Translations under genes and position numbers: made by a program
Assembly: GCA_033558025.1 (NCBI GenBank)
Contig: JAUCEF010000012.1
Coordinates: 1,984,001 to 2,048,000, forward strand
Reading direction: 5' to 3'
From: Phytophthora sp. 'mugwort'
Taxonomy: Eukaryota; Oomycota; Peronosporomycetes; Peronosporales; Peronosporaceae
DNA: 64,000 nucleotides
Shown: one piece after another, positions 5,459 to 32,090 of the stretch
Layout of the letters: every line of letters begins with the position of its first letter
Position numbering within the stretch: the stretch's first letter is position 1
The notes under the pieces: model-generated
Database searches by the model: none
What the model was told of the DNA's origin: nothing
What the model saw: the letters and a program-made list of their open reading frames with translations, nothing else

Positions 5459-6937
5459 GTGTCGGCGCCACAACCTAATGGCATGGGTAGCTGCAGTGAA
5501 CGTAACCCACCCCGGTACCAAGCGGACCACCAAGCGGTGCGCATACACCTGAGGAGACCTGACGACCCACTGCGTATTCGCAAACCTGCCAGAGTATATC
5601 TACCGCCTTCACAAGCGAAGGCGGAGGTGACATCGGTAATTATCGATCGGCATCAGGACTTCCGGGAGAAGCTACCAACGCTACTGATGCAGGGGGCGAC
5701 AGTGACGGCTCATGCGTGGGATGGGCTCAAGGAAACGATAAGGAAGGAGGCGCGACTGGCAATCAAGCACAAGAGGAAAAGTGCTAGGGCGACCTACAAA
5801 CAGAGAATCAGAAGGCTGCGGCGACGGGAACGACGGCTACAGGATATCGCGAGGGGTAGCATGATCTCGGTGGACACGATGGCAGACCTCATGGTCACTC
5901 TTACCTTGACGGAGGGTGAAGGGGCCACCCCATTGCAGTGAGTGCGCAACGCGATAACGGACTGTATACGGGCGAGGGCGGCATCGCAACGCCGCAACTT
6001 GTTCCGTGCCGGCGGACACCAGCCGGGTAAATCGTCGAAGCAGTTCTTCAGAAGGGTACATACTATATTTGGGGACAACGAGATACACAAGATCGACGCA
6101 GCCATCAGAACGAACGCTCGTGGTGTACACGACAGGGCGGACACATTGGCTGACGCATGGACTCCATTATTTCAACAGGAGCAATCCACTATGGCGGATA
6201 GACAAGCGGTGCTGGAATGGTTGGGTGACCCCGGCCAATACGATACAATCCTGGAGGACTTACACGCACCGTTTAAGAGAATGAAGTGGCAGCTGCCATC
6301 GGAGCTTCCAAGCCTGGAAAGGCTTGCGGGCCTGACAGATTGGGCAACGACTGGTATCGTGACTTCTCGGCGCAGCTCATTCTCCTGCTCACGCAAATTT
6401 TTAATTGCTGGTACCAGGCCGGGACCTCTCCCTCTTCCTTTCTGGAGGCAGTTAGTTTTTTCTGCTTAAAAAAGGGTGGAGAAGCTACGGACCCCCTCAA
6501 TTTCCGTCCTTTGGCGCTACTCGACACGGAACACAATATATTTACGCGCATAATGGCAACACGGATGGGCGTGAAGTTGGATCGGATAATTTACCCGAAC
6601 CAAAACGGTTTCGTGCCAGGGCGGACGATACATGCCACAGTTGATCTATTCAATGAGGCACAAGCAGCAGCGCAAGCAGGTCCAGACATGGCAGCAGCAC
6701 TTGCACTTCTGCTAGACTTCTGCAAAGCATATGACTCCGTGGACCGGAAGTTCATAAATGAAGTACTCACTTGGTTGGGATTTCCGACGGTATTTGTAGC
6801 TGCAATTAGGGCGATGCACGAAGGCACTAAGGTTCGTTTTCTCGCCAACGGGCATAAATCGAGATGGGTGAGAGTTGACGTGTGGTATTAGGCAAGGATG
6901 CCCGCTAGCCCCGCTGATTTTCATTCTGGTAGTCATC
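5459..6937 (+). pseudogene. LINE ORF2: linker and N-terminal half of reverse transcriptase
   Basis: The linker ORF (5459-5941) is basic and arginine-rich. From 5942 frames change several times. 6286-6891 encodes the RT fingers and palm: KACGPDRLGNDWY, then FRPLALLDTEHNI, QNGFVPGRTIHATVDLF, LDFCKAYDSVD (palm motif with the first catalytic Asp) and, after a frameshift near 6880, GIRQGCPLAPLIFILVV. The catalytic ADD box is missing on this side: the protein is interrupted at 6937 and resumes at 32083, 25 kb away. Reverse transcriptase copies the LINE RNA at the nicked target. Frameshifts and the insertion make it dead. Confidence 0.85.
6930..6937. repeat. 8-bp junction sequence TAGTCATC, left copy
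   Basis: Identical to 32083-32090. The LINE reverse transcriptase keeps its frame if exactly one copy is retained, and so does the virus polymerase on the other strand (GATGACTA). That makes it a shared crossover sequence better than a target duplication. Confidence 0.75.
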
Positions 6938-8790
6938 ACATTTGCAGCCACCGAGATATGTCGTAAGATACTTATCGTAGCTGGTACCAGCTGGTACATA
7001 GTTGCTAATATCGAGCATTTTCATGTTCGATGTAGCGATGCACATGTAGCTGGGTTCTTGATAACAGATTTGATGTTGTCAGTACCAATGATGGTGAATA
7101 AGTCGCTCTTAATCAAGTTGATATCGTATCGACCCGAATTGAAGCCGAATACTGGTATCTGATCAATCTGCTGTTTAAGTCTTCCGTAGTCGGACCTCTG
7201 CTTACCAAAGCCAAGGCTGCTATGGAAGTGAAAGAAGCTATCATACTTCCATTCTTTAATCCAACTCTCCACATCAGATATCTTGTACTTTTTACCAAGC
7301 TTGACGCCTGGAATTTCCATACCTGTCAGACCGTGGGCATTGATGATTTTTTGCAGAAGCGACTTATACTTATCGACATTGTACTGTTGGCTTCACCGAT
7401 ACATAACCAATGTATTTGAACATATCCATAAGCAACATCTTTGGATCGTCATTTACAAACAGCGCACCTCCTCGGTTAAGCTATCAGCTACGGATACAGA
7501 CACCGGAATGTGTTCGTTCGTGAAGACAGTATTCTCCCCGTGTTGAGTCGCCGTAGGCTTAAGGATTGCCTCAAAGTCATAAACAATGAAGTGGTCGATG
7601 TACTGGTTAGCATCCTTAACGGAATACTTTGTAAACAGTGATCGAATCGCGTTAGGAGCTGGCTTGTAGATAGTTGGCTCAGCGGGGAAGCTCTCAATAT
7701 TAACAAGCTCGCACTGATTTTTCTTGTGATTTTTAAATCTTTCACCACTCACGAAAATCATTTCACACTTGGGGCACTAATACTTAGAGTGAAGCATATC
7801 GATGCTCCTGATGTAGAGAGCGTGATTCTCGTGTGATAGAATATCCATCGCTTCATACCCCTTGTCCGACCTACGAATGTATTCCACATTTCCGGTAGCT
7901 ACATCCATGCTATATACGTTGATACCGAGTTGGAAGCAGTCCTCACTCTCATCGAGCTGTAGTAGGTCAATAGGCTTGAAGCTTCTAAATAGGCTCAACG
8001 TATAATTAACCCCCTTGAAAAGATCAGTAGCGCTTGAATGCCTCCTTCACTCGAGCCTGAATTCTGCGAGGATCCTTCTTAGCGCTCTGGAATGTGTGCC
8101 AGGCGATGCAGTGGAAGACGCACTTGTTGTTGGTCTTAGGGAAGTTGATTACATGCTTGTTTTCGCGGATAACCTTAGGAATAACAGCATCGCTATCCCC
8201 AAGAGCATGGTCGCGATGATAGACAAAAATCTTGAATGCAGTGATCGCCTTAAGCTTATATCCGGAGCTGGGGTAGTTCAGCTTGTCAGCCAACTCCATA
8301 GACCGAATTTCCGAAATCACCTTCTTTCGAATATCCGCCTTGCTGTTGATTGCGACAGGCTTATTGAATACATAAGTGTTAGCGAGATTTGGGTAGAAGT
8401 AGCGAGTGTCATCAGGATCAGTCTTGTTCACAAGTTCGTACCCAAGAGCAATATTACCTTAAAAGCACTTGCCTGGGTCGAAAGAACGTTCTCGAGCTTA
8501 TCGTAGAAATCAGTAGCCTCGATACCCTCATATAGGTGTGATTCCATGTGATTACCAGTGTAAAAACGGTACCTGGGATCAGCCTTATAGTCAGGCGACA
8601 TATGCTTCTCAAGGGTTTCAACTGAAACATTGTACTGCTTAGCCACCAATTTCTTGTTCATTGAACGTGAAATGTTGCTAACATATACCATCTTACCAGT
8701 TCTACCTCGAACCTTAACCCTGTAGCTGCAACCCCATTTGACAGCTTGGATATTTAATCTCTTTAATCCTGCGAGTTCGTATGCAAACAT
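6938..8790 (-). pseudogene. polB: Protein-primed family B DNA polymerase, N-terminal half
   Basis: This half would carry the region before and including the 3'-5' exonuclease. The start is the ATG at 8790. A zinc-finger-like CPKCEMIF...C block lies near 7780-7710, followed by IVYDFEAIL (Exo I, D-x-E) and FGFNSGRYDINLIKSDL (Exo II). The gene is broken: a 1-base frameshift near 8450, a stop after AFKRY at 8024 where the neighbouring frame continues, a TAG just before CPKC, and a frame change near 7450. The frame runs off the left edge of the block at the 8-mer and continues at 32082. Polymerases of this family replicate linear genomes from a terminal protein and are a Maverick hallmark. The total gene is about 1320 codons. 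Confidence 0.8.
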
Positions 8791-8885
8791 ATTGCCTATA
8801 TATCTTTGTCGATATTAATCTGGTGAGAATCGACTTTATAATTATCGGACCTTATATCAGGATCGACTTTATATTGGGGCTGACT

Positions 8886-9120
8886 TTATATCTGAGAAAA
8901 AAAATAATTAGTAAGTTCGCTTTGGTTAAGTTCGCTTTGGCTAAGTTCTGATTTACTTAAGTAATTCTTCTTCTTACGGGCACAAATTTCTTCGCGATTC
9001 TTCTCATCATATTCTCGCTGCTTAGCCAGTCGCGTTTCCCTTGTTTTTATGATAGTACCGCTTTTGAGCGGCTTTGATTCGCTCTTTGTTAAGTTCGTAT
9101 TGTTCAGGTGAGTACGTCAT
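8886..9120 (-). pseudogene. Small lysine/arginine-rich protein, one frameshift
   Basis: An ORF of about 77 codons from the ATG at 9120 to TAA at 8886-8888. The first part reads MTYSPEQYELNKERIKAAQK and the rest is a highly charged, probably helical stretch (REYDEKNREEICARKKKNY). It ends in three near-repeats of a five-residue SEL-containing unit. One extra G near 9050 breaks the frame. Short basic proteins of this style are common in large DNA viruses, but I recognise no family. An AATATAC motif lies just upstream of the start, as in other genes of the element. Confidence 0.5.
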
Positions 9121-9489
9121 CTTTGTATATTACTAACTTCATATTTATCAGGAATAAAATATTATAATAGAAGGCAAAGCTCCGCATTCATTACTTTTTA
9201 TGCCTACTTCGAAGCGTATTACTAATCTACATATCGCTTGCACCCCTGCGGTCTTACGGCGAACAGTATGCCTCGCTTTTCAAACAACTCCGGCATCCTT
9301 TGCCGCATTAAGCTTGTCGCTTGCTCTCTGCAATGAGGCCTTGGCTCCACATTTTTGTCAGCCTCCTCCAAACTTGAAAATCACCCGAAAGTCCGACGAC
9401 TACCGACCTTAAAAAGTGTGGACCACATCGTGTAATTTCTCGGTCAAAAAGCAACTCGGTCGAAAAGCAACCAGTGAGAAAGAGCAGCG
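9121..9489. other. Intergenic: virus AT-rich flank, then leader of the Uma2-type gene
   Basis: Sequence up to about 9190 is AT-rich like the virus genes. From there on the composition becomes balanced, like the Uma2-type gene that follows. The short frame at 9200-9412 has no features. The 60 bases before 9490 contain a partial repeat (AAGCAACTCGGTCG, then AAAGCAACC). Confidence 0.4.
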
Positions 9490-10377
9490 ATGGCGGACAA
9501 GCAAAAAACTCACGAAGACGTCCTTACGCGACTCATGCGCGACTTGGAAACGAAGGCGACTTTGTGCTACGTCAAGGACTATCCTGGAGTGGAGCTGAAG
9601 CAGTTGAATTATCACGTGAAGAAGCTCGGTCCACTGGTGAACCCCGTTTTTGGCGAGCAGCCGGCGTTCTTCATCGACGAAGGTCGCTTCATCCCCTTTC
9701 GAATGGTCGTATATGGCAACGAGAAGGTGGCAGCCAAGATTGCAGAGCTCCTTGGTGAGTGGTCAAAGTGGTCTGGAAAAGGAGGCAGAGTGACAACCTC
9801 GCAAGGGGCGTTCATTCTGGAGCAGCGTCCCGGAGGGCCCAACGTGAGAATGCCCGACGTGGCATACACACCGCGAGATGATGACAGGAATTTTTTTTTG
9901 ACTCGTGAACAGATGTGGACGTATCGTGGCGATCCCTTTGTTCCCACCTTTGTTGTTGAGATTGATAAGCTCTCTGGTCGAGGCTCTCAACGCAGCGCTC
10001 TTGATCGAAAGATGCGAAATGAATATTTCCAGCACGGCGTCCAGTTGGGTTGGCTGATCGACCCACGCCCAGACTTTCAGCGGATGTATGAGTACTATCT
10101 CGACGACAATGGAGACGTACAATGCTCTGACAACACTGCGTGGAGAGATCTTGACGGTGGCGACGTTCTTCCTGGTTTCACTCTTGTTAGCACTGATCTG
10201 GAGATGGTGTTGAACCAGGATTCGGGTTCGTCGTCAGAAGATGAAGTCGATTTTACTTGCCCAGAGCGAGGATGCAGAAAGCGATTCCGATCGCGCAGTT
10301 CATGGACTGCTCATGCTGAATGGCACCGTGCTGAGCGCTCTCGACAGAAGTTCTTAGCCAAGCGTGAGAACTCATAG
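9490..10377 (+). CDS. Uma2-like PD-(D/E)XK nuclease with C-terminal C2H2 zinc finger
   Basis: An intact 295-codon gene. The middle (about residues 70-215) matches the Uma2/DUF820 fold: MPDVAY (first Asp), FVVEID (Glu) and then DRKMRNEYFQHGVQLGWLIDP (Lys, followed by the usual G-V-x-L-x-W-L-I-D-P strand). After an acidic serine stretch (SGSSSEDEVD), a classical zinc finger follows: C-x4-C-x12-H-x3-H at about residues 257-279, with a basic tail. Uma2 proteins are predicted DNA nucleases. The finger suggests DNA targeting; this is inference. The gene lies inside the terminal repeats of the Maverick, between polB and the right terminus, so it looks like cargo. Its intactness and more balanced base composition contrast with its decayed neighbours, suggesting later capture or selection. 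Confidence 0.75.
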   Translation: MADKQKTHEDVLTRLMRDLETKATLCYVKDYPGVELKQLNYHVKKLGPLVNPVFGEQPAFFIDEGRFIPFRMVVYGNEKVAAKIAELLGEWSKWSGKGGRVTTSQGAFILEQRPGGPNVRMPDVAYTPRDDDRNFFLTREQMWTYRGDPFVPTFVVEIDKLSGRGSQRSALDRKMRNEYFQHGVQLGWLIDPRPDFQRMYEYYLDDNGDVQCSDNTAWRDLDGGDVLPGFTLVSTDLEMVLNQDSGSSSEDEVDFTCPERGCRKRFRSRSSWTAHAEWHRAERSRQKFLAKRENS

Positions 10378-10577
10378 TTATCCAGTGTGAACTCATAGCC
10401 ATCCAGTGTGGCAACTACGCTTCGACAAGTTCCTATCTAACCATATCGCAGAACTCAAAGCTTGCGATCTAAAGCATAGTTGGCGGCGCTGACTGATTTC
10501 TTATTCCTGATTGGTGGCTAAGAGAAGATAATAAAAAACTATCTATTGTTTTATCAATATAGTTTGAATGTTGTCGG

Positions 10578-10754
10578 TCGAGCGGTTCTAAAACTACCCT
10601 AAGATCCAAAAGACGTTGCTTTCACTCTAAGGTGGTCGAGAGGTAGCGCCGTCAAAATAGCACCTGGTCCGAAAGAAGGTTCCAGGATTGTTCTCGATGG
10701 TAAATTACGGAAAGTAAAAAAACTGCCGGCGTAATGTTCCAAGTATTACTACTG
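10578..10754. repeat. Maverick terminal inverted repeat, right terminus
   Basis: The reverse complement of this stretch matches 17794-17971 over about 177 bp, roughly 88 percent by eye. The outer end (at 10754) reads CAGTAGTAATACTTGGAAC when taken into the element. Similarity stops sharply outside 10754 and fades inside 10578. No target duplication is visible beside it. Confidence 0.8.
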
Positions 10755-11000
10755 ATGATGGCTCAGACGTGGGCGGCTTTTGGAGATTGTGTACAGGCGC
10801 TTTCGCGAAAGCGGCCACGATTGGTGAAGCGCTGGTCGGCTTCACAACTTCACGGTGTTCATACTTTGGGCACAGAATTGGTTGTCCGAAGCCTTCAGAA
10901 CCGACGGGAGTCCCGTAGAACGGCTGCATGCTCGCCGAACAATCTGGACAAGAGTGCGCACTTCCAACGAGTTTATCATAGCCATCGCAAGGGGTCTATG
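10755..11000 (+). pseudogene. Probable 3' fragment of the carboxylesterase gene
   Basis: Directly outside the right terminal repeat the translation starts MMAQTWAAF, resembling the late helix of type B carboxylesterases (M-x-x-x-W-x-x-F before the C-terminal part). The 5' portion of a carboxylesterase ends exactly at the other terminal repeat (17793). The frame degrades after about 60 bases, so only the start supports the call. If right, the virus sat inside this gene, with about 20-25 codons missing at the site. Confidence 0.45.
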
Positions 11001-11149
11001 TCGATGCGTTTCTCGAAGGCATTGCTACTTCTTGTTGCTTTCGCGTGGTTGCTGGCTGATGTAAAATTAAACGCTCTGGCTCCAATTTATGATAAATATT
11101 GGTCTATTTTCGAGAATTTGGGCTACCTTCGTATCGCAATTGCAGCTAC

Positions 11150-11310
11150 CGTATTTTTTTTTACAATAGCACCACTTACCGTGGTGGACCCTAACCAATC
11201 CACGAAGGCGGGCTCGAACCCAGGGCAGCAAATTAATAGAGTCGGACCTATCCCGCTTCACCAAATTCTCAGAACCACTCACACTAATTACACACCACTA
11301 ATTGCGGTTG
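11150..11310 (-). mobile_element. SINE-like insertion with tRNA-type B box and poly-A tail
   Basis: On the minus strand a stretch near 11275-11185 contains TGGTGAAGCGGGATAGG (A-box-like) and GGGTTCGAGCCC (B box, the tRNA T-loop sequence). It ends in an A-run (T-run at about 11151-11162 on the plus strand). Imperfect direct repeats beginning AATTGC lie on both sides. This fits a tRNA-derived SINE. It does not fold into a good complete tRNA. Confidence 0.4.
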
Positions 11311-11375
11311 CTACTGTATATATGGAGGAGTATCCGCAACCTGTGCTTTTGTGGTGTCTGGATATGCAGCAGTAG

Positions 11376-12112
11376 CTCAGAAAAGAAAAATGAAAATGTA
11401 ATTACCAGAAAAGTTATTTTGTAGACGTAAAAAAAAACACTGCCAGTTTTACGACCATATAAATTATTCGTATTTGTCTGCGATCTTATCGAATAAATAA
11501 TTCAGTACAAATATTCCAGTATATTTGCCGTACAATCATTTATTCGGGGCCTGATCGTTCGCTCTGGCTCTTTTATCAGCAGCAGCCACGCAGAAGATAC
11601 CAGGTCGGATCCGACGGCAACCAGGGCAGATGGAAGGGAACACGTTTTCCAAAACGCTCGGGACTTGGATCGCACCCCCGACGAAAACACCCGTCTCTGT
11701 TGCGACTGGATCCCCAGTACCTTCCCGTTGCTTTCGCCCTCAAGAGAGAGAGGATCAGACTGTCTATTCAACTTCACGGTGTACAAGATGCCTTCGACTT
11801 CAACTTGGACTACATTTGGTGGAGATTCTAGTCCCCAATAAGACCAAATAGACAAGTCTGCCTCTCTCTCTCTCTACATTTGGTGGAGATGAGCCGGGTC
11901 GACTGATCCAACGCGCAAATCTTTGAGGTGATCTTCACGGAAACTATACCTTGCCGTTCCGACGATATTAATTAAAAATTAATAACAACAAGAAACAAAG
12001 GTTGCATGTACTACATGATTAAAACTCTCACTATTTCTTAAAGAGTGTCAATCTTATGCTGGAGCACAATACAACCCGAACCAAGCCTAAAAAGGAGTCT
12101 GTCTGGTCGCAC
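11376..12112. other. No gene seen; possible LTR-element remnant
   Basis: Contains an exact 16-mer duplication, CTACATTTGGTGGAGA, at 11810-11825 and 11874-11889, with CT repeats between them. The minus-strand frame at 11502-11855 shows no motif. It may be the edge of a retroelement; no domain supports that. Confidence 0.3.
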
Positions 12113-14860
12113 TCAGCCCACACACCTCGCTCGCCACTTACACATGCACCTGGCCGCTGAAAACCGCCTCCTCCGCATTCCTACTGATGTAAATGGGACG
12201 TTCACCTTCGCCACTTCCCAGTTCGACGTGTTCACGTTGTAGAAGCTCAGCTGCTTCTCGCGGATACCGATACTCACTGTCGTGCTCGCGCCGGCCTCCA
12301 ACTCCACATTCGCGAAACCGACCAGAGCCGTCGAAGCGAACTGTACGTCCGGATACGCCGTCGCGGCATCCGCTGGCGGGCCAATGTACACTTGCGGCAC
12401 CTCCACGCCCTTCACAAAACAGTGTTTGTCACTGTGAACGACACACTGAAGACTGCGTCAGTGTCGTCCGGGTTGCACGAGACCTCGTAGTTCAGACTGC
12501 TACTGCTTTGCTGCTGTGACGAGCTCGATGCCGCGAAGTTCGGGTTGCTGTACTCGAACGACGTGTAGCTCAAACCGTAGCCGAACGGGAACAGTACACT
12601 CGTGTTCGTGTGCACATACCAGCGGTAGCCGTTGTTCAGACCCTCGCTAAACGTCGCGTTACCGCTCTCCGTGGCCACGCCCTGGCCACGCGCTCCGGGT
12701 ATTCCGGACTGCGGGTCATTGTCGAGTCCAGACTTGCCGGGTACGTCACGGGCAGGCGGCCTTGGGGCACGCTATTACCCAGCAGCAGGTCAGCCGTGGC
12801 CCACCCACCCTCCTGGTTCGGGTACAGCATCTCCAGAACAGCAGCCACGTCGTCCAGCCACGGCATCAGCACGGGCTCGGCGTTGTTCAGCACCACTACA
12901 GTGTTCGGATTCGCAGCAGCCACCTTCGTCACCAGCTCATCCAGGCCGTCGTCCAGGGTCAGACCAGTCTCGGCGGGGCTATTGGCGAACGCGAACACGA
13001 TGGGCGTATCGACCTCCTTGGCGACGTCGACGGCGATCTGGATGTTGGCTGCACGCTGAGCGGGAGTCACCCAGGTCAAGCGCACAGACGTCTGCTCGTC
13101 GATGAGGCCCACGATGTTGGCCTCCAGGTCGTGCCAGCCTTCCTCCAGGTACACGTACGACTTGATATTGTCCCAGTTGTCGCGAGTGGCGATCGAGTTA
13201 CTCCAGGGCTTCATACCACCATCACCGTACAGGCGGTAGCCCGCACCGACCTCCGTTCCATTAATGCTGAAAGCACCGATCGCGAAGATGGTGCCATAGT
13301 CCGGATTCGTGTGGTTCTCCCATCTCGGGATCGCACGCGCGAACGAAAACGTGTAGTGCCCGTCCGTCTCTGCGTATACTTGTCCTTGCCATGTATACGA
13401 CGCGTTCCTCGGTAGAGCAGACGTGCCAGTGAAGTACACGATCTCGTCGTCTGACCTGCTGCCCAGGCTATCGTTGCGGCTCAGCCCAGGGTTCCCCAGC
13501 AGGTTGCGCAGGTGGGTCGACGGAATGATCGTTCCCTCCTGGTCCACGCCGACGGCGTTCGCGACGTCCTGACCTAGACGAGATTTCAAAGCCTCAAGCG
13601 TCGATACCTGGCGTTCAGTAATGCCGTACGCACGCTCAGCAAAATTCGTGCCGTGCGTATACTGCACGCCGTTGGGGCCGATGACGGCGATGGACGAGCC
13701 CGCCTTGATGGGCAGCGTGTCATTGTGGTTTTTGAGCAGAATTCCCGACTTGACGGCGATATCGTACGAGATCTTGGCATGATCCTCTACCACATCCTGC
13801 GGCAGTGGCGACGAGCCCTCTGTAGTCGTGCCCAGTAGCCCAAACTCGTCGTACTTGGCCAGGATGTGGCCCACGGCACGGTTCAGATACGACTCGCTCA
13901 GGTTTGTGAGATATAGATGTGGTCGTATAGCGCGTCGTAGTATGAGCCTGTCGGCATCTCGAGGTCCATGCCGGCGATGAGGCTCTCGGCGGTCGAATGC
14001 GTGGCGCCCCAGTCGCTCATGACGATGGCAGAGCTGTTGTAGTCGTTTCGCATGGTGTTGAATAGCGGTTCGTACTCACAGGCCGGAATGCCGTTGATCT
14101 GTGCGTACGAACACATGAGCGTGGCGGCATTTCCTTCTTGCAGAAGAGTGCCGTGAGCAACCCAATACAGCTCTTGAAGCGTCTGCAAGTCCACAACGCT
14201 ATTGACATCGCCAGCACTTGCACCGGTAGACGACGGTCCGATCTGTTTGGCGTTGGCCATTGAGCCCTGAGCCTGTAGACTCTCAACACCTTGGACACCG
14301 AGACGGGCGTTCAGGTATGGGTCCTCACTGTACGACTGCCAGAAATTCCCCTCCACGGGGTCCCGCAGGATGTTCACACGAGGTGAGAGAGCTACTGCCA
14401 TGTTGAACAGCTTGGCCTCCTTGCCCGTGATCACGCCGTGCTGGTAAGCCGCTTTCAATGACCATGTGGCAGCCACGTTGAGCTGCGTGGGTGGTCCCGT
14501 GGCGTTCTGCACGATGTTGATACCAGCTTCACCATCAGTTAGTCGGATAGAGGGGATGCCCTGCGACGTGATGGGGACGCTGTAGCCGGCCTGCTGCTGG
14601 TTGCCGTCTGAGTCGACAGCGCCGTGGACGAGGCTGACCGTCTCCTCGGCAGTCAGGGCCTCGATGATGGCGTCAACCTTGTCGTTGCCCGTGCGCCAGG
14701 AGACGGTGGCGAGCGGATCGCCGGCGCTAACGAGTTGCGTACAGAGAGCGAAGGCGATACCCCAAATGTGACGGAGACCATGATCTGATGCTCCGAGTGG
14801 GTTGATGTTTGTAGTCGGAGGCACGTTTGCGAATGAATGGGGATGCGATCGGGACACCAA
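12113..14860 (-). pseudogene. Secreted glycoside hydrolase family 3 beta-glucosidase, broken
   Basis: About 900 codons of GH3 in successive frames. Near 14790 a hydrophobic stretch (IWGIAFALCTQLVSAG) looks like a signal peptide. The N-terminal domain includes GIPSIRLTDGEAGI and VMSDWGATHS, whose Asp is the GH3 nucleophile. The second part (13874-12636) contains a PA14-type insertion (VYFTG...YTWQGQVYAETDGHYTFSF) and the C-terminal sandwich domain. FPFGYGLSYTSFEYS and EVPQVYIGPP mark the fibronectin-type end. Frame changes occur near 13900, 12685 and 12417, and probably one at the signal peptide. Such enzymes release glucose from beta-glucans outside the cell. It lies divergent from the carboxylesterase, 1.5 kb apart. 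Confidence 0.85.
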
Positions 14861-22943: not shown

Positions 22944-22964
22944 AGCTTGAGACAAAAAACAACT

Positions 22965-24968
22965 ATGAGTTCTGGTTTTCATTATCCTCAGCCAATTTTC
23001 ACATCAACCATCTATAATCCCGATTACTTTCAAAAGTTGGATTCGTCTGGTTATCTGTCATATGAGTATGCTCAGACTTTGTATCTTGATAAGAATGATT
23101 ATCGATTGACGTTCCTATCAGGGATTACACCCGGGATAGCTACACAAGGCGTATCACTTGTTCCTGGAACCAATAATGATATTAGTGGGCTTGGTACTAT
23201 CAGTTGCAGCGCTCTGACGGTCGCAGGTGTTCCCGTGGGGACTCTACCATCATTCTTAGATGGAATTACACCCGGATCAGCCGCAAACTCAAAGGCTCTC
23301 GTTCTTGGAGGATCTGGCGAAATCGGAACTATTACATCACTAACGGCGACCAATATTTATGGATCCATAAAGACCGCGGCGCAGCCTGGTATTACTTCAC
23401 TTGGCACTCTCTCAGCATTGAATGTCTCTGGCGCTGTATCGGCAGCTACACTATCTGGCACGCTATCGACAGGAGCTCAAACCAATATTACTTCACTTGG
23501 GACGCTATCAGGGCTCACGATTGGCGGCAACCTTGTATTCACGGGTGCAGGTAGATTACTAACTGGTTTATCATCAATATCCGCAACAACGCTGACTGGA
23601 GCTGTTTCAGGATCTCAAACGGGCATTACGGCTGTTGGAATCCTAACCAACCTCACGCTGAATACTGGTGGAACTGGTTTGCAAATACCTAGCCTCAAAT
23701 TCTGGAACTCATCGTTGGGATCGTATCTCAATTTGATCATGTGGCATTCGTTGGCATCAGTTATGGTGGTGCTGTAGCATCTAAAGCTCTCGTAGTTGAT
23801 ATCAACAAGGATATCGCATCGATCCGCACTCTTGATGCCCAAAACCTGAATGGTTCGATAAAGGTCAGCGGGACACCCGGCGACTTCGGATCGATCAGAA
23901 TCAGCGGGACTGATGTTATCACAAGCTCAAGGCATATCCAAAATATCGGTAATATTGCTTGTAGCGGAACGTTGAACGCATTCGCTGGGTATTAAGTCAA
24001 TAGTGTTGCTTTCGTCGATGCAAGTCGAAATATATATCAGCAGCAACCTTTTCAACATCTGGTGATATTACGTGCTCTGGAAGTCTAAAGGGTTTTTTAG
24101 CTTACGGAAATCAAGCTAATATAGCAACTGTAGGAAGCTTAACAGAGCTAGGCATTAATTCAACACCTGCAAATGAATATTTCTCTATTACTGGATCTGG
24201 AACGGATTATTTGGATAGTAGCTATACAAGGATGCTTGCATTTAAAGGATCGAACATTTCACCTGTTCAGTTTCAAATCGAGGTCAATAATGGCACTAAT
24301 GCAACATCTACGAATGCTACTTGAATTGGAAATTATACATCTAATGACCTAAGATTTGGTACTAATCAGACAACTCGTATGACTCTAACGAACACTGGAC
24401 GTCTTGGATTATCTACTGTCACCCCATCAGCCCCTCTCCATGTCTCTAATACTGTAAGTTATACATGGAATAGTGCAGGTAATGTAGGATTAACAGCGTA
24501 TCGACTAAGAAGTGACTCTGGAGTGACAGAAACTGCTACTGGAACACCAATCACATATACAAATGTATGCGGTATATTTAGCGGATATATTGGTTGCGAA
24601 GCGATGGTTATGCAATCAGATCGTCGTTTAAAGCAAGATATTGTTAATGTGCCTATTGGCCGTGTTGAATGTCTTTACAAGACCTTGAAAGTGAAATCAT
24701 ATAAATGGAAGCAACATCCTGATAAGCCAAAAGAATTGGGTCTGATCGCTCAGGATGTTTTAGATCAAGGATTCTTAGATTTAGTCGCTCGTATCCCTGA
24801 TAATGATACAGAACTTGAGCAAAGTTCTGATCCATGGTTAGAGCCTAAGGGGGTAAAGCTTCATGTAGATTATTCAAAATTAGCTGCTTATAACGTGAGA
24901 ATGATTCAGGCATTGATTAATAGAGTAGATGACCAGCAAAGCAAATCGATGAGTTGAAAAATCGCTGA
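22965..24968 (+). pseudogene. Spike/fibre protein with S74 intramolecular chaperone domain, broken
   Basis: About 660 codons from the ATG at 22965. The shaft (residues 60-450) is a string of short beta repeats such as ITSLGTLSALNVSGAVSAATL, rich in G, T, S and I. The C-terminus (from about 24600) contains SDRRLKQDIV and KELGLIAQDV, signature blocks of the peptidase S74 domain. That domain folds trimeric phage tail spikes and then cuts itself off. Damage: frameshifts near 23740 and 24000, a TGA near 24324 and a shift near 24930. This predicts a trimeric host-recognition fibre on the virus. The S74 call is solid; attachment is inference. Confidence 0.8.
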
Positions 24969-24981
24969 GTGAGTATAGACA

Positions 24982-25243
24982 ATGGCTGCCTTCAAGTTTA
25001 GAGTTTCTCAACGAAAGGAAAAAATATGATGCTGTGTTTGATGATGGTAGCATTGTATCTTTTGGCGCTTTCAAGCGGGATGGTACGCCTTATCAACAAT
25101 ACAAGGATTCGACACCTTTAAGAGCATTTCGTGCGTATGATCACAGCGATAAAGCGAGGCGCGAAAGATACTATAAGCGACACAAAAACAACCATCCGAT
25201 GTACTCAGCCGATTGGTTTTCGAAAAAATATTTATGGACCTAA
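24982..25243 (+). pseudogene. Small protein resembling DUF5754, one frameshift
   Basis: About 87 codons from the ATG at 24982, with a TATAGAC box just before it. After a single-base shift in an A-run near 25025 the frame reads IVSFGAFKRDGTPYQQYKD and ends KRHKNNHPMYSADWFSKKYLW. The pattern (V-x-F-G, Y-x-x-Y-x-D, R-x-x-Y-x-x-R-H, W-x-S-x-x-L-W) fits a small family found in many large DNA viruses and their relatives. Function unknown. Confidence 0.6.
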
Positions 25244-25253
25244 ATATAAAACA

Positions 25254-25493
25254 ATGGGTTGCCTACCAAGTAAAGAGCTCAAAACTAATTTAACTACTGA
25301 TGAACCTAATCAGATCGTGGGATCGACGATGCTACAAGCTGACAAAAGTATTGTTCTTGGTGATAGTGTGTTCCTTCCCACCAAAAGTCCTGATGGTGAG
25401 TCTGCCATACTTGAAGTAAGTATCAGCGATAAAAAACTAACATTTATCGAGGATATCGAAACAAACTCGTGCGAAGTGGCATTGCTTAGATAG
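25254..25493 (+). CDS. 79-residue protein with N-myristoylation-type start
   Basis: Intact. It begins MGCLPSKEL: Gly at position 2 and Ser at 6 fit an N-myristoylation signal, and Cys3 could be palmitoylated. The rest has no recognised domain; a beta-rich half ends KKLTFIEDIETNSCEVALLR. An AATATAAAA box precedes the start. I suggest membrane association during assembly or entry, from the N-terminal motif alone. Confidence 0.5.
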   Translation: MGCLPSKELKTNLTTDEPNQIVGSTMLQADKSIVLGDSVFLPTKSPDGESAILEVSISDKKLTFIEDIETNSCEVALLR

Positions 25494-25502
25494 TAAACGT
25501 CT

Positions 25503-25726
25503 TCACGGTCTTTTTTTCTTAGGTTGGTAGGCCCACATACGCCCACCCTCGGTTTGCGTTGATGCATCCACCTTCCTGATGGACTTATCGAGATCAGTAG
25601 CCCATACGGCTGCCTGAGTCTTCTGAGGGCGTTCATGAATGATTAGATTCTTCATAATGGTTTTGAGCTCAGCAACGTTGTTATCAGCGTTATCACTGCA
25701 ATAATTCGGGGGTTAAAGAAGAACAT
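25503..25726 (-). pseudogene. Small hypothetical protein, one frameshift in a C-run
   Basis: About 74 codons from the ATG at 25726 to TGA at 25503-25505. Starts MFFFNP, then an extra base in a run of five C (near 25708-25712) shifts the frame. The rest reads AELKTIMKNLIIHERPQKTQ and ends in a lysine-rich YQPKKKRP. No family recognised. It is convergent with the myristoylation-type gene, 9 bases apart. Confidence 0.5.
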
Positions 25727-25728
25727 GA

Positions 25729-28392
25729 TTATAGTAGTCGAGTTATAATTTCTTTAAATTCTTTATCATCAATGAGTCGATTGCTGTACATATTCACTGT
25801 AAGAGACTTGAGCTGTTTGATGATGCTTGGATTATCATTTCCTAACTCAATATGAGCCTTGAGCTTGTCATACTCAGCGCGAAGTGTTTCAAGTGGATCA
25901 GTGAGCTTATCGTGAAAATTGTACTGAAGATGAGTTATCGCAAGGAGCTCTTTGAACATTTTTTTATCTTCGATGCTGAGCTTGTCATACATCCCCTGAT
26001 CGATATGGTTCTTATATACGAGACTTCTGATCATTGATTTTAGGCTATCACTGATTTGACACTTCGGCCCACACTTGCGACGATTCGGCTGTACAATCAC
26101 AAGAGTCTTAGTATCAAGGTCAGGAATACGAATGTACTTGCTACCAAGCTGTCGATAAACGTAGGCGCTTGGTGTCGCTAACCCCTGAATCTCATTTAGG
26201 TTGTAGGTCCTTCCACGTCTGACCACCCCATCGAGTGGTGCAACACCTGCTCCTCTTAGGCCACGACCTTTCAATCCGCTTCCACTAACCTGATTGATCA
26301 TATCATTCATAACTCCACGAACCGATGTATCATCTTGACGATCAACAAAGCCATCTACATTGATTTGCTCCTGAGCCACAATGCTACATTGTTTAGCTTT
26401 TGCGTTAAATACAGCACTTGTTGCCTTCATAGCTGATGCCGCTGCCGTTAGTGCCGATCGAGCTGATTTTGAGTTGTTTCCTTTGACTGCTTCCTTAGCC
26501 TCTTCATAACGTTTTTGCGCTTCTCCGTATGATTGGTAAGCGCGTTCAGAATCGTCATGAAGCTTCTGTAGTTGGTCTTCACTATCAACCTGAGTATAGG
26601 TTCAATACCTTGTCGTCTGATATCATGAGCCGTATTCAAGATTGCTTCATTCAATATTTTAAGATTATCATCGAGATTTTTGCGCCTTTGCTGATCAAGT
26701 TTCTTACTTTCAACCAATTGTGCTGCTTCCTCATCATTTAATGGGAATGGATACTCAGCTTCCTTGAGATATTTATCCAAATCCTCAAATCCATCGAGAA
26801 ACGATAGGAATGTACCCATCCACCTGATATTCCTCATCAATCCCTTCCACGCTTCTCCAGATACTTGCTTGTGTTTCCCATTTCTAATATTCAATGGTCT
26901 GGTCTCAGATGGCTCACCAAAATAATAGTCTGTATGCGTTTTAACACTATCTTTAACCTCAACGATTGGTTTGCGTCTAAACGGGATTTTAATACCCTTT
27001 GAAGGAAGTTGCGTATAGTAATCAGTTAAGATGTTTTTAGCATCGTTATCAGCGTTGGATAGGTTTTGATCCATATCTTCATCAATTCCAGCCATAATAC
27101 CTTGACGTGCCTCACCTACGCCTTCTGTGAAATCATTAACATCAATTTCTTTGTCCTCATCACCGATCATCTCTAAGTCAAGACCTTTCGACCTGACCAT
27201 ATCTACAAATGATTTGAGCGTAAGTTGCCAATTGACCTTCTTGATGATAGCCGGCTTCATTTGATTACTTTCCTTACCGAAAACACCAATAGTACTTCCC
27301 TTGATCCATACATAACCATTAGCATCAAATGGTGTTGATTTGTTCGTTCCTTTAAGGATAGGAACAATCTTCTTCATTAAACCATTAGATTCAAGTAGTT
27401 CCTTATTTTTAGCAACGATAAGTACATTTTGAATTTACTATTAGACTGATCGGAAGTTGTAAAGTTGAATTATCAAAGAGAAAACTGTCCTCAAGTCGTT
27501 GTTTGCTTTGTTTATAGTCGTCAAAAGAAGAAGCACTTGCTCTTTTGGATCCAATACGCTTCCATACTTGAAAAGGTGCATTTTTATCCTCTTTACCCAT
27601 CTCATTTCGCTCATGTTTCTCATTGATACAATTGTTAAATCTAACATCGTTTGTGATGACAAATCCAATATGATCGTATGTCTCTTCCCCATCAATGCTT
27701 GGAACCGAGACAATCTTGTTCAATCTAATACTGTATGTCTTAGCTCCGTTTCCAATATAATACTTTGTTAGCTGACGTCCATTAGAAGCAAGAGGATGAA
27801 TACCCATTTGAGCAAGAATCGGATAAACCTCAAATATTTCCTCAACCGCTTTCTTAAATTCGTTTTGAGAGATTTGTTCATCATCGCTAAACAGAGTGTC
27901 AGGTGTTGGTGATGCATCCTACCCAACAGCGATATCAACTGAAGGGATACTAATTCTTTCTATTGAAACATTAGATAGTGGTCTCTGTAATGGAGGGATA
28001 CTAACACCATCCAGTTTAACATCGGAAAGTAATCTAACGTTAGGTTCTGTGTTAGTTCCAGTTGTTGATACCTCAGGGTTTATACCAGAGTTTTCATCAC
28101 TGAGACTTTTTTCTAAGTCGGATTGAGCAATCGCCTGATCAATAATATCATTCAGGTTTTGCTTCACTGCATCAGGGATTGCTTCATCAGTGCCAACACC
28201 TGTATCAGTTTGGGTTGTTGCCGCCGTCTTCTTAGCTATCGTAGTGAAAGAATTGGATACATCAGTCGCCCACGATGTGCTCTGATACATCTCACGCTTG
28301 GTGTTAGCTTGTCGAACCCGTCGCTGAGCTTTTTCAAGTAGCTCCTGACGTTTCTGCTCTCTCTGAGCGAGGGATGTGAAATTTGGGAACAT
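25729..28392 (-). pseudogene. Large structural-type protein of about 890 codons, family unknown
   Basis: Four successive frames of the minus strand read as one protein: 28392-27919 (helical, glutamine- and arginine-rich start MFPNFTSLAQREQKRQELLE), 27900-27409, 27420-26448, and 26430-25729. Breaks lie near 27915, 27425 and 26440. The C-terminal part has GRGLRGAG, a CGPKC-like pair and a long charged helix. It is the longest gene of the element after polB and sits between the spike block and the integrase. I recognise no domain. Its length and place suggest a virion component. Confidence 0.6.
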
Positions 28393-28396
28393 CGTA

Positions 28397-28403
28397 TCTA
28401 TAT
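28397..28403 (-). promoter_or_regulatory. ATATAGA motif before the large unknown gene
   Basis: Reads ATATAGA on the minus strand, 4 bases before the ATG at 28392. It overlaps the last codons of the upstream 108-codon gene. Confidence 0.55.
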
Positions 28404-28724
28404 GTTGCGAATCATAAAAAAATGAGTACTCAAATTACCAATAACTCGGCATGACTGAGTCGTGTCGGAAGTAGCATAAGAATGACAATTATGATTTCGC
28501 TCATTTAGAAGATTAAGATATCGATCCTTGATACAATGGAATGGAACTCCAAATATATCTTCCAACTCATTTCTATACTTCTCATTTACAACAGTTTTAC
28601 GGAAATTAGCGACAGCATCAAGATTCATCAACTCATTCTTGATACGACTAACCTCCTGAATGATCCAAAGCTTCCTCTGTAGCTTGGCAAGCTCACGTTC
28701 TTTCTCTAAACAGCCTGCACACAT
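28398..28724 (-). CDS. 108-residue hypothetical protein with CAGC start
   Basis: Intact. It starts MCAGCLEKERELAKLQRKLW: a C-x2-C pair followed by a predicted coiled coil. More cysteines and histidines follow (HNCHSYATSD), so zinc binding is possible. The stop lies 5 bases before the start of the next gene, and both read in the same direction. No family recognised. Confidence 0.5.
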   Translation of the reverse strand: MCAGCLEKERELAKLQRKLWIIQEVSRIKNELMNLDAVANFRKTVVNEKYRNELEDIFGVPFHCIKDRYLNLLNERNHNCHSYATSDTTQSCRVIGNLSTHFFMIRNI

Positions 28725-28731
28725 TATTATA

Positions 28732-28738
28732 TCTATAT
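28732..28738 (-). promoter_or_regulatory. ATATAGA motif before the 108-residue gene
   Basis: Reads ATATAGA on the minus strand, 7 bases before the ATG at 28724. The surroundings are AT-rich. Confidence 0.55.
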
Positions 28739-28902
28739 ATCAAGTCAGATATTTACAAAAATATCATTAAAAATATATCGAATGATATACCGAGTCAAAA
28801 GCTTACAGAGGATGTCTCTATTAAACTTATTTACAAGCTAATTAGGACTCATTTTTTAACCCCAATACTCCTTTTCAAGGGTAGATCTCTTATTTTTGTT
28901 GA

Positions 28903-29936
28903 TCAATCGGAGATTACCTTGCGGTTCCAGGAATCAGGTTCATTACCAAAAAAAAGAAGCCATCTCACCAGATATTTGTACTTTCCAGAGCGTATCTTTT
29001 TGTGATCCAAAATCTTCTCCGCCTCAAGAATATCACCTCGATTAATAGTAGCATTCGTAGTCTCTGATTTAACCATTTTAAGATCGTTTGGTGCCTTGTA
29101 GAGGGTATGACCATTTTTTGAGCGAATTTGGACTCGGTATCCATCAATTCCAACGATCGTATAGACGGCTTTGCTCCATCGAGCAGCTTCTTTATCAAAC
29201 CTCTGCTTCTTAAGTCGATATAGCACATTTGCTCCGACTTCGAACTCATTTTCAACTCTCTCTGCTTCACCTTGATTATGTTCCAGCTCTGACCCGATGA
29301 CTTTACCTTTGGCCTCGTTTGGGGTCATTTTAATCGAGCGATGAAACGTGCTATTATAGTTTTCGATAACATCGCTGATAAGCTTTTGCGTAATCCTCCT
29401 GGGAGACATTTTAGTTAGTCTCTGCTTCAAGGTCCTGTTGAATCGTTCGATTTTACCCATGGTTCCATGATCACCTGGTTCGTTGTTGTAGTGCTCCATT
29501 TTCTTAGTTTGGAAGAATTCTTGAGCCTGTGAGTTCATGAACTCGCTTCCATTATCGCTTGTCAGGATATCAAGTGTGTGAAGGTGAACAAATGCTTTAA
29601 GCGCTGCTAATACAGTTGCTGCCGTCTTGTTTGATAAGAGCTTTGCGTACCCCAAGCTTGAGTTGATGTTGATAGCATCAAAATTGGTCGTTTCTCCCAA
29701 AACGCAAGATCCATTTGCCACGAATTGGGGTTGTGTGAAGCTATTTTGAAGCCATCAAATCGCTTCTTCTGATCCTGAAATCGTTGAATATCGGTCTGGT
29801 TAGCATACCACTCCTTTACGATTCTGATAGTAATCTCAGGATCTAACTCCTTTGCCTTCTGATACAGAGCTTGAGTGCCGATAAAACCGGTTTTTGGATC
29901 ATAGTAGAGTTTTTCCAGTAGATCTTGAAAAGACAT
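28903..29936 (-). pseudogene. Maverick rve-type integrase with C-terminal chromodomain, one frameshift
   Basis: About 344 codons from the ATG at 29936. The retrovirus-type catalytic triad is visible: SWQMDLAF (Asp), ILTSDNGSEF (Asp) and GKIERFNRTLKQR (Glu). A single-base shift just after the first Asp (near 29700) breaks it. After the core come an SH3-like segment (GANVLYRLKKQRF) and a chromodomain: KILDHKKIRSGKYKYLVRW, then DSWNRKVI. The integrase joins the virus ends to host DNA, and a chromodomain can steer integration to marked chromatin. An ATATAGG box lies 6 bases before the start. Confidence 0.9.
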
Positions 29937-29984
29937 GATCCTATATTTAGAGGAAAAAAATAAGCATCAGTTCGATATATCCCC

Positions 29985-32082
29985 TTAGACATTCAGCGGA
30001 ATCGTTGAAATACCGTCCGACATTACCTGGCGCTTATCATAGTAGTAATTGAGCGCTGTTTTGGTTTGAGTATAGGTAATGATCGATTTGGTTTCTTTCG
30101 ATAGTCTGAAACCCTTGTTAGTACCCGAAGTGTGATGCGGTCCCGTACAAGTCTCGAAACCATCTGGGTTAAGTACATCAATATTGCGACCACGCCCCTG
30201 CTGTATACCCTTAGCACTGACTTCGACCTTGTGCTCCTCGTCCGGTAGGTAGCAGATGTAGTTCTTAGAGGATAATGAGACCATTGCATCACCTCACCAC
30301 TCTTCCTTGAATAGACCAGGCGTGCGGCGGTCGAACTTGGCTACCTCAGCGTTGTAGTCTCGCGGGAATCACTCATACTTATGCTCATCGAAGTGATCAC
30401 GTAGTTTAGGCTTAATGCATTCTTTGAATGGGTTATCGCAGCTGAATGCGATATAGCCACTATCCGTGTCCATCTCCTGATATTGAAAGTCTGAACGATC
30501 GAAGTAAAAGTCGATACAGTCATAGTAAAACTTAAGCATGCGTAGCTTAGCGAGCTGATAGATAGCAATCGATAAATGGATCGGGTTCTTGTTGTTGAGG
30601 CGACGCTTTTTCATCGTAATCTCACAAGCATCATTAAGCTCCTCCAACCCGTGGAACGTAAAGTGTTCGATCTTGCTCTTAATAGCTTTGTCGTTCGACT
30701 CATACTTGACCTCTTTGTGCTTGCTCATATCCATTCCAGATCGACCAAAAGCACTGTTGCCTACAAGTTTCATCATCTCAGCAATCATCGCCTTCGACTT
30801 ATCAACATCACCTTCCCGTCGAACGTTTGATACAGCCTCCATAAAAGGATCAAAAGCCTTGTGAGAGCTGGCCTTAATAAAGCAGTAAGTCTTGGTGATC
30901 TCCAAACCGTGGGAAAGATACCATTTAAGCAAAGGTGTGTATATTAGAATCTTTTCACCAAAGTAGCTACCTATAAGCTTGCGAGCTGGTTTTGCTCGGC
31001 TGTGTTTACGTACCTCGTTGTACTTGTACATGTGATGACCAATGACGCTCTCATCAGTACAATCGATTAGTGTGTTTTTGAAAATTGGGGTCATCTCACT
31101 GAAGTAGTCTCGAAGATGGTCTGGAGTTTGAATATCGCATTCAAGGAATCCGAAAAACTTATCAGCAACGATGTCCTCGACAATGCCATCATAAGCCTCG
31201 ATCGTAGTCAATCGTCCGCATGGCATCTCATTACCAAGTGCCCATAGGTATAGAGCGTTAGCATCGTATCCGATAATTTTCTTACAGAACTTACCTCCGC
31301 GAATATTTGTCTCATTGCGCTTAGCGTAGCGATTAAAGATAATAGATGGGCCTCCAGCAATGTTGGCCTTCATCTTAGCGTAGATGTCCTTTTCCTCCTT
31401 ATCAATGCTATACACCAATCTGCCCGAGTTGAACTCAAGCAACTTCTTATAGCGGAATCCCTTGAGCGACATGTCCTTACGAGCGGTGTTGCACTTGATA
31501 CAGCTAACCAATATGTTGCCATCGATGTGTCCAAGCTTGTTGTTGATACGGTCTGCTGAAGCGGTATCGACGGTCAGCTGACAGTAGCATAAACCACACA
31601 GATACTTTTGCTTTTGCAGCAATGTATCCAAGTGATCAAGTGTCATACCAAATTCACGCTTTGTCTTAGCATCCTGACTCTTGTAGCCGCCCATGCGCTG
31701 GGGTGGGAATTGGAATACGTTAGCAGGTGTCTTATCCGGGTATTGGAGATTGTTGAAGCAGGTCTGATACATAACCTTTTCACTAAGTCCAGGTAGCGAC
31801 ACTCCATCTGCAAACATATCCAGATCGAAACGCATGAATAGCTCGCGCTGGGCTTTGATAGCCTTGATGAATGGAACTACATCGAGATTGTTGTACCATA
31901 CCAGTAGGTCCTTAATGGATTTCATCTCATAGTACCCCCACACGAACTTCACTCGCTCGTAGTCATCATCGGTGATGCTTGTTCCACGGAGCTTGCTGTC
32001 AAAAGCTGACTTAGGCGGGATAGTAGTCTGGTACTCGAGGCGATCTATCGTCGGAGCGATCACAAGCCCAAGATTTCAAGCA
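29985..32082 (-). pseudogene. polB: Protein-primed family B DNA polymerase, C-terminal half with HNH insertion
   Basis: Continues the polymerase begun at 8790. Order: DDDYERVKFVWGYYEMKSIK and DVVPFIKAI; then an inserted HNH/endonuclease VII-like domain (about 31640-31480: CGLC, ADRINNKLGHIDGN, CIKCN); then palm motif A YDANALYLWALG, motif B KLVGNSAFGRSG and motif C DTDSGYIAF with the catalytic Asp pair. The protein ends at 29985. Internal stops: TGA at the 30370 boundary where Trp is expected, a second TGA near 30290, and one near the 32075 junction. Codons on both sides of these stops are clearly polymerase, so they are recent nonsense changes. Function: virus genome replication. Confidence 0.9.
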
Positions 32083-32090
32083 TAGTCATC
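32083..32090. repeat. 8-bp junction sequence TAGTCATC, right copy
   Basis: Second copy of 6930-6937. LINE coding sequence continues to the right. Confidence 0.75.

What the first reader, a model, noticed from the sequence alone, without database searches (positions are those of the whole stretch)
6930..32090. A virus circle reinserted into a LINE: two genes broken at the same 8-mer
The LINE reverse transcriptase ends at 6937 and resumes at 32083. The virus DNA polymerase runs off the left edge of the block and resumes at the right edge, on the other strand. Both breaks sit on the same 8-bp sequence, TAGTCATC, present once at each junction. Keeping exactly one copy restores the LINE frame (GTC ATC CGC); it also restores the polymerase frame (GAT GAC TAT), apart from one TGA. 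This is the footprint of a single crossover between a circle and linear DNA. Insertion of linear virus DNA with a target duplication does not explain it, because the polymerase itself needs the 8-mer.
Basis: partly seen in the sequence, partly recalled or inferred. Interest (0 to 1): 0.95.

Follow-up and report, generated by a model that had tools for sequence, protein, structure and literature searches.

The report
Polinton-host gene circle inside a LINE
In the genome of a likely Phytophthora relative, a 25-kb block made of the two halves of one virus-like Polinton with 7 kb of host genes between them splits a LINE retrotransposon with no sign that a base of the LINE was lost; the block was likely pasted in from a DNA circle that would have formed when two neighbouring Polintons recombined, which would show a way for such elements to copy host genes to new places.

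Summary
The LINE stops at 6931 and resumes at 32034; the 3 relatives fetched that cover the join align straight through it. The polymerase stops at 32032 and resumes at 6932; 10 of 10 copies uninterrupted here hold 73 bp between these points and lack TAGTCATC there, so the shared 8-mer is chance. The real junction sequence is TCTGGT(A): 6 bp shared by virus and LINE. The block is not a bare virus circle: it is Polinton right half, 7.04 kb of host DNA (GH3 gene, 5' part of a carboxylesterase gene), Polinton left half, the virus ends facing each other around the host DNA. The likely donor lies 11.6 kb away: two same-direction Polintons, each with its own 6-bp target-site footprint, separated by the same host segment. 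Best reading (0.6): recombination between them freed a circle of one Polinton plus the host segment, which entered the LINE inverted, losing 73-79 bp. Main rival (0.2): LINE/polymerase inversion plus later Polinton recombination. The left junction exists in 9 places; the right one was found once. New variant of a known kind: circle-mediated segmental duplication.

The parts
6277..6931 (+). LINE, left half (reverse transcriptase up to GIRQGCPLAPLIFILV, with a frame change before the break)
   Evidence: RVT_1 E 4e-7 for 6277-6891; relatives L043, L057, L058 align up to the join
6931..6932 (.). left junction LINE|Polinton
   Evidence: uninterrupted polymerase copies match from 6932; same junction in 9 near-identical places on contig C12, the window included; 8 of these shown by base, the window included
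6932..10753 (+). Polinton right part, including the upstream part of the polymerase gene on the - strand
   Evidence: contiguous with the left part, 73 bp apart, in 10 of 10 uninterrupted copies; native copies aligned
10580..10753 (+). right terminal inverted repeat, ends ...CT
   Evidence: 159 of 175 aligned columns identical to the other arm
10754..10759 (+). GATGAT, inner half of the target-site footprint of donor Polinton P1 (other side GATAAT)
10754..17794 (.). host segment H, 7041 bp, between the two inward-facing Polinton ends
   Evidence: 5 near-identical copies, all on C12; partial 84-86% relatives of the GH3 part on C4 and C5; the H|left-end junction in 5 of 5; GC 52-59% from 12001 on, 44% in 11001-12000, against 37-49% in the Polinton
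12636..14863 (-). GH3 glycoside hydrolase gene in two overlapping frames
   Evidence: PF00933 E 5e-20, PF01915 E 5e-36
16757..17794 (+). 5' part of a carboxylesterase gene, cut by the Polinton end
   Evidence: PF00135 E 5e-50 for the frame 16757-17950; its likely 3' continuation starts TATAACCTGCTCGG after the right Polinton end elsewhere
17789..17794 (+). TATAAC, target-site footprint of donor Polinton P2; the same 6 bp follow the right Polinton end at C12:2.717 and 2.332 Mb
17795..17969 (+). left terminal inverted repeat, starts AG...
17795..32032 (+). Polinton left part
18393..19610 (-). capsid-like gene (405-aa frame; many relatives about 572 aa)
   Evidence: UniRef names 'Major capsid protein', 'Capsid protein', 'Virion structural protein' for three relatives, other names (hydrolase, exonuclease) for three more, most unnamed; a model of one relative best hits Sputnik and mavirus capsid proteins, but its mean pLDDT is 51
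28903..29754 (-). retroviral-type integrase with a weak chromodomain match
   Evidence: rve E 2.5e-6, below its curated cut-off; Chromo E 7.5e-4
30369..32032 (-). downstream part of the DNA polymerase gene
   Evidence: 1029 relatives at E<=0.001, several of the 120 listed with precomputed PF03175; no Pfam hit of its own
32027..32032 (+). TCTGGT, in the 10 uninterrupted Polinton copies read and in the LINE (6925-6930): 6-bp microhomology of the right junction
32033..32666 (+). LINE, right half (LEAIYRR...YADD), with a stop at 32292
   Evidence: RVT_1 E 0.006 for 32034-32291; L043, L057, L058 align on from 32034; no second near-identical copy among 18 candidates, all scored

Best explanation
The block is likely a reinserted extrachromosomal circle: two Polintons (P1, P2) that stand 7 kb apart in the same direction, 11.6 kb from the LINE, would have recombined to free a circle of one Polinton plus the host segment between them, and that circle was likely opened in its polymerase gene and joined, inverted, into the LINE. 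Shown: the block is P-right, H, P-left, 25,101 bp, against a native unit of 18,139 + 7,041 = 25,180 bp; its ends are 73 bp apart in uninterrupted polymerase copies; the LINE shows no loss at the join; P1 is flanked GATAAT/GATGAT and P2 copies TATAAC/TATAAC, and H in the block carries exactly the inner footprints GATGAT...TATAAC; P1-H and the left part of P2 still stand next door in opposite orientation. Inferred: the circle; its birth by homologous recombination; joining at the right by a 6-bp microhomology (TCTGGT) and at the left without homology, either by end joining or by a polymerase that left the LINE after TCTGGTA, copied once round the circle and came back at TCTGGT. Later steps, also inferred: fold-back fusion and unequal exchange amplified the left junction into an array of 26.4-29.3-kb units, and a roughly 388-kb inversion split the neighbouring P2.
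For: Break points. Ends 73 bp apart on a 25.18-kb unit; chance for a random linear piece about 0.6%. Three of 3 fetched LINE relatives that cover the join align straight through 6931|32034; the nearest gap is one base, 7 bases away, in L043. Donor next door: P1 C12:1961212-1979350 with GATAAT and GATGAT flanks, H on the - strand at 1954-1961 kb, P2 left part to 1940.1 kb. What looks like this P2's right part, at 2328.5 kb, still holds the 73 bp and is followed by TATAAC and the carboxylesterase 3' part. A second P1-H-P2 copy at 2.717-2.760 Mb has a P2 uninterrupted at this point with TATAAC on both sides (L010; L050, L053). So P2 copies exist that were not broken where the block is. Microhomology of 6 bp at the right junction, 0.0005 at a random place in the same register (looked for after the fact). 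Left junction in 9 places including the window; one other of them is followed by GATGAT-H as in the window.
Against: Because the donor has a Polinton on each side of H, the block is collinear with P1-right, H, P2-left; the order flip that marks other circle cases cannot be seen, and the circle rests on the end coincidence. The right junction is seen once, in one assembly, without reads. The neighbouring P2 was split by another rearrangement only 38-40 bp from the block's break (31992-31994 against 32032), a coincidence this model does not explain. Of the 9 left-junction places, 6 are followed by TATAAC and the carboxylesterase 3' part, 2 (window and array end) by H, 1 was not read; four of the six are P2-like along their whole Polinton part (27-28 differences). 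The block's own right part is a mosaic: 26 P1-like, 25 P2-like, 3 neither of 54 diagnostic sites, equally far from both (67/3813, 68/3814). H differs from the neighbour by 11/5296, but the Polinton parts by about 1% and 1.8%, so H was exchanged or gained later.
Confidence: 0.6

Rival explanations
2. A bare Polinton circle (ends joined) entered the LINE; H was copied in later from the neighbouring P1-H-P2 by repair of the palindromic end-to-end joint.
For: The stretch of near identity between block and neighbour (no substitution 10470-10753 and 17784-18607; 11 in the 5296 bp of H compared) starts and ends just inside the Polinton ends, as repair from the neighbour would leave it.
Against: Gene conversion between two arms that both had H gives the same pattern; H is already in the array-end unit (14 substitutions in 3863), whose LINE side differs by 19 in 2231 (L004). 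No end-to-end Polinton joint turned up in the array map, but no dedicated search was made.
Confidence: 0.08
3. A linear piece, or a template-switching polymerase on the linear P1-H-P2 locus, was inserted; no circle existed.
For: The block is collinear with P1-right, H, P2-left; microhomology at one junction fits template switching.
Against: Start and end would have to fall within 79 bp of each other on a 25.18-kb unit by chance, about 0.6%, unless this polymerase site is a break hot spot. Of 39 polymerase left pieces other than the window's, 28 have a right piece 50-110 bp on; of the 11 without, one is the neighbouring P2 and the others may be effects of lists cut at 40.
Confidence: 0.08
4. 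Assembly error in a palindromic, repeat-rich region.
For: Copies 98-100% alike in both orientations; right junction seen once.
Against: Left junction in 9 places; 7 of them differ from the window by 19-21 of 2231 on the LINE side; the LINE halves fit to the base, which a random misjoin would not give; the LINE right half has no second near-identical copy.
Confidence: 0.04

Closest known systems
Circular-DNA-mediated segmental duplications in human (Chicote et al. 2020, PMC7450558; abstract and passages seen) and the cattle KIT case cited there (Durkin et al. 2012, not read)
   Same: Donor kept, copy circularly permuted, opened at one point, joined at an unrelated site with microhomology and small indels.
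   Different: There the scars suggest closing by end joining and the order flip is visible; here closing would be by homologous recombination between two virus-like elements, the flip is hidden, and the loss at the opening (73-79 bp) exceeds the 1-27 bp reported there.
Transposed Arabidopsis genes with flanking repeats (Woodhouse et al. 2010, PMC2869330; passages seen)
   Same: Proposed recombination between direct repeats frees a circle with the gene, which reinserts.
   Different: Repeats there are short and mostly genic, with reinsertion by homology; here 18-kb Polintons and insertion at only 6 bp of shared sequence.
SVA-linked lcr16a duplications in great apes (PMC9132208; passages seen)
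   Same: Mobile elements take part in circle-mediated movement of host DNA.
   Different: SVA-SVA recombination mediates integration there; here the mobile element would mediate excision, and integration is by microhomology.
Region B circles in wine yeast (Galeote et al. 2011, PMC3053389; abstract and breakpoint section seen)
   Same: Differently organised copies attributed to a circle, 2-3-nt identities at some joins, little or no loss at the target.
   Different: No repetitive elements around the breakpoints; independent insertions in many strains.
Origin-dependent inverted-repeat amplification (PMC4689423; passages seen)
   Same: Inverted extra copy near the donor through an extrachromosomal intermediate.
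   Different: Predicts palindromic joins at short inverted repeats and integration by homology; the two joins read here are LINE-Polinton joins with at most 6 bp shared.

Membership tests
Polinton/Maverick | terminal inverted repeats (outer bases AG...CT; label recalled) | tested here: met
   174/175-bp arms, 159 of 175 columns identical, AG...CT
Polinton/Maverick | 6-bp target-site duplication (recalled) | tested here: met
   P2 copy at 2.717-2.735 Mb: TATAAC on both sides; P1: GATAAT/GATGAT, one mismatch
[quoted passage not shown]
   several close relatives carry precomputed PF03175; the window piece itself has no Pfam hit
Polinton/Maverick | retroviral-type integrase | tested here: inconclusive
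   rve E 2.5e-6 but below Pfam's cut-off; transposase PHROGs, best E 6e-10
Polinton/Maverick | double jelly-roll capsid protein | tested here: inconclusive
   capsid names for some relatives, other names for others; Foldseek best hits Sputnik and mavirus capsid, but model pLDDT 51
Circular-DNA-mediated segmental duplication | copy is a circular permutation of a retained donor | tested here: inconclusive
   ends 73 bp apart on the 25.18-kb unit and donor retained; the order flip cannot be seen because the donor repeats on both sides
Circular-DNA-mediated segmental duplication | microhomology or short indels at the joins, target otherwise intact | tested here: met
   6-bp TCTGGT, 73 bp lost from the virus side, no LINE loss at the join
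Circular-DNA-mediated segmental duplication | the circle itself | not testable with these tools
   needs reads or circle sequencing
Integrase-mediated Polinton insertion | terminal repeats at the outer edges of the insert | tested here: not met
   terminal repeats are internal, facing each other at 10753 and 17795

The most novel reading that the evidence does not exclude
Pairs of same-direction Polintons work as excision handles: recombination between them frees circles of Polinton plus host genes, which re-enter elsewhere and seed amplification, so that a virus-like element moves whole host genes by a route that does not use its integrase.
Probability: 0.3. Interest if true: 0.7.

Novelty: new variant of a known kind. 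Interest (0 to 1): 0.55.

Why it matters
Circle-mediated duplication has been reported in a few animals, plants and yeast, and for the human cases the scars suggest circles closed by end joining (PMC7450558). Here donor, target and both joins can be read to the base on one contig, and the handles would be virus-like Polintons. If right, Polinton pairs can copy host enzyme genes (glycoside hydrolase, carboxylesterase) in a likely oomycete and start arrays; that can be tested by looking for Polinton-gene-Polinton loci and for the circles. Full-text searches pairing Polinton or Phytophthora with eccDNA terms showed no such case in their titles and abstract starts; only an open-licence library was searched and most listed papers were not opened.

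Tried and rejected
Rejected: the 8-mer as crossover point; integrase-type insertion (terminal repeats internal); a bare virus circle as the simplest reading (host segment inside). A plain LINE/P2 inversion was rejected as a one-step model because P2 copies keep the 73 bp, but kept as a multi-step rival. A fragile hairpin at the polymerase site: no inverted repeat reported in the stretch around it in 2 uninterrupted copies (minimum 10 bp, seed 7). A P1/P2 diagnostic-site test to separate circle from inversion was indecisive, since the block is a mosaic and most array copies are P2-like. No PDB sequence relative of the polymerase piece at E<=1. Capsid model weak.
Full report
What the window is. 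The window is C12:1984001-2048000 of an unnamed 86.26-Mb assembly in 154 contigs. The named relatives among the 120 listed for each of two Polinton proteins are from Phytophthora and Plasmopara, so the host is very likely a Phytophthora-like oomycete; I did not identify the species.

The breaks. Comparison of the block's edges with Polinton copies shows the virus side ending at 32032 and resuming at 6932. Eleven polymerase loci besides the window were fetched; ten (L010-L019) run through this point, and all ten have 73 bp between these positions and no TAGTCATC there; the TAGTCATC each shows nearby corresponds to window 31960. The eleventh, L020, is broken at 31994. The LINE side ends at 6930/6931 and resumes at 32034: in the relative L043 one base lies between the two matched halves. 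Five distant LINE relatives matched the left half; I fetched the three that reach the break. With flanks joined at 6931|32034 the LINE aligns to L043, L057 and L058 with 14, 26 and 17 gap columns over about 600-800 columns, none at the join (one single-base gap 7 bases left of it in L043); keeping one 8-mer gives 63, 71 and 60. A fourth relative, L044, covers only the right half. The joined LINE reads GIRQGCPLAPLIFILV-LEAIYRRSDHKPKISSIVIRSKAG...YADD. The second 8-mer is 50 bp inside the LINE. Sharing some 8-mer between two 200-bp pieces is common: 1962 of 5000 random pairs; pairs closer than 400 bp were not scored but stayed in the total.

The junction sequence. The LINE left edge ends TCTGGTA and the Polinton right edge ends TCTGGT before the LINE's A. 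TCTGGT is in the ten uninterrupted Polinton copies, so the right join is a 6-bp microhomology (0.0005 at random places in the same register; post hoc). The left join has none that I could see. One reading is end joining of a staggered LINE break; another is a polymerase that left the LINE after TCTGGTA, copied the circle once and returned at TCTGGT.

The block. A 143-nt inverted pair extends to Polinton terminal repeats at 10580-10753 and 17795-17969, with outer bases ...CT and AG.... They are internal and face each other. Between them lie 7041 bp, mostly of higher GC, with a GH3 gene and the 5' part of a carboxylesterase gene. Around this lie an integrase-like frame, a capsid-like frame, an endosialidase-chaperone frame and the polymerase. 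So the block is P-right, H, P-left.

The donor. H exists near-identically in five places, all on C12, each bounded by the Polinton left end. At 1940-1979 kb, just left of the window and on the - strand, stand P1 (18,139 bp), H and the left part of P2. P1 is flanked GATAAT and GATGAT. P2 has TATAAC before its left end (window 17789-17794) and TATAAC after its right end, where the carboxylesterase reading appears to continue; one P2 copy, at 2.717-2.735 Mb, was read with TATAAC on both sides (L050, L053). So H had two independent Polinton insertions at its sides, and the block's H carries exactly the inner footprints, GATGAT...TATAAC. P1's left end is 11.6 kb from the LINE break.

Why a circle. 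The native unit is 25,180 bp and the block 25,101 bp. Its two ends would meet within 79 bp on a circle; a random one-unit piece would do so about 0.6% of the time. P2 copies still contain the 73 bp: the one at 2.72 Mb (L010), and a right part that begins at 31992 at C12:2328513 (L049). The neighbouring P2's left part ends at 31994 at 1940096, joined to DNA upstream of an ankyrin-like gene (label from reading the translation by eye). L020 and L049 overlap by 3 bp and look like the sides of one roughly 388-kb inversion, separate from the block; I could not show that their two host sides were once adjacent, so that L049 is this very P2's other half is inferred. If so, the LINE/polymerase joins did not consume the neighbouring P2, and an additional copy of the unit was inserted.

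What does not fit. The inferred inversion break lies 38-40 bp from the block's break; I have no explanation. The array, read at 2.33-2.53 Mb, repeats LINE-left|Polinton-right in units of 26.4-29.3 kb. Eight right Polinton ends were read there: seven continue with TATAAC-carboxylesterase, one of these (2332482) without a LINE in front, and one with GATGAT-H. So of the 9 left-junction places 6 continue with TATAAC, 2 (window and array end) with H, and the one at 2550.9 kb was not read. Four of the six differ from the P2 right part by 27-28 in 3855; a fifth (2463 kb) is P2-like at nearly all diagnostic sites but differs by 77 in 3820; the sixth (2492 kb) and the array end are mixed. The block is a mosaic: 26 P1-like, 25 P2-like and 3 other of 54 sites, and equally far from both (67/3813 and 68/3814; P1-P2 54/3818), with a P1-like run at 7753-7921 where all seven array copies are P2-like. 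Unequal exchange after a fold-back fusion explains the array, but an inversion-first history predicts it too. H is closer to the neighbour (11/5296 over 11101-16396) than the Polinton parts are (67/3813 right; none to 18607 and then 21 to 20759 left), the near-identical stretch running from about 10470 to 18607, so H was homogenised or even gained after the insertion.

Age order, relative only: window and array differ by 19-21 of 2231 on the LINE side and 17-25 of 1499 on the Polinton side (L002-L008). No clock was applied.

Counts with limits. Left junction: 9 near-identical places, the window included, among 14 matches; 8 shown by base, the window included, all with the same join, one (L007) with a base difference near it. 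Right junction: only the window among 40 scored of 141 candidates, and the LINE right half only once among 18 of 18 candidates. Polymerase left pieces with a right piece 50-110 bp on: 28 of 39, window left out; both lists are cut at the best 40.

Literature. Passages were read from PMC7450558, PMC2869330, PMC9132208, PMC4689423, PMC8204020 and PMC6431247, outlines and one section each from PMC7188851 and PMC3053389. Polintons in Phytophthora are known. Circle reinsertion is known; the Polinton handles, the retained adjacent donor and the base-level LINE target make this a new variant.

Noticed in passing
C12:2330001-2530000 (L023-L042): Array of 26.4- and 29.3-kb units made of host flank, LINE left half, Polinton right part, carboxylesterase 3' part with a second carboxylesterase, and inverted Polinton left parts; the first units carry an extra internal inversion.
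   Followed up: partly
L020 (C12:1940096) and L049 (C12:2328513): A P2 left half and a P2 right half about 388 kb apart with a 3-bp overlap, suggesting a large inversion with a break 38-40 bp from the block's break.
   Followed up: partly
9478-10377: Frame in the Polinton right part with a Uma2-type endonuclease domain (PF05685) and a weak C2H2 finger.
   Followed up: no
30369-32030: The polymerase piece has an endonuclease VII/HNH-like stretch at residues 120-193 (PHROGs, E 8e-9).
   Followed up: no
24325-24957: Frame with an endosialidase-chaperone domain (Peptidase_S74, E 8e-11).
   Followed up: no
37919-42854 and 57944-59423: A Copia-type element with 300-nt end repeats 99% alike, and a second remnant sharing stretches 91-99% alike with it.
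   Followed up: no
6862-6931: The LINE reading frame changes shortly before the break; relative L043 has frame changes and stops too, so these LINEs read as pseudogenes.
   Followed up: partly
62155-62298: Five 48-nt copies at 24-bp spacing.
   Followed up: no
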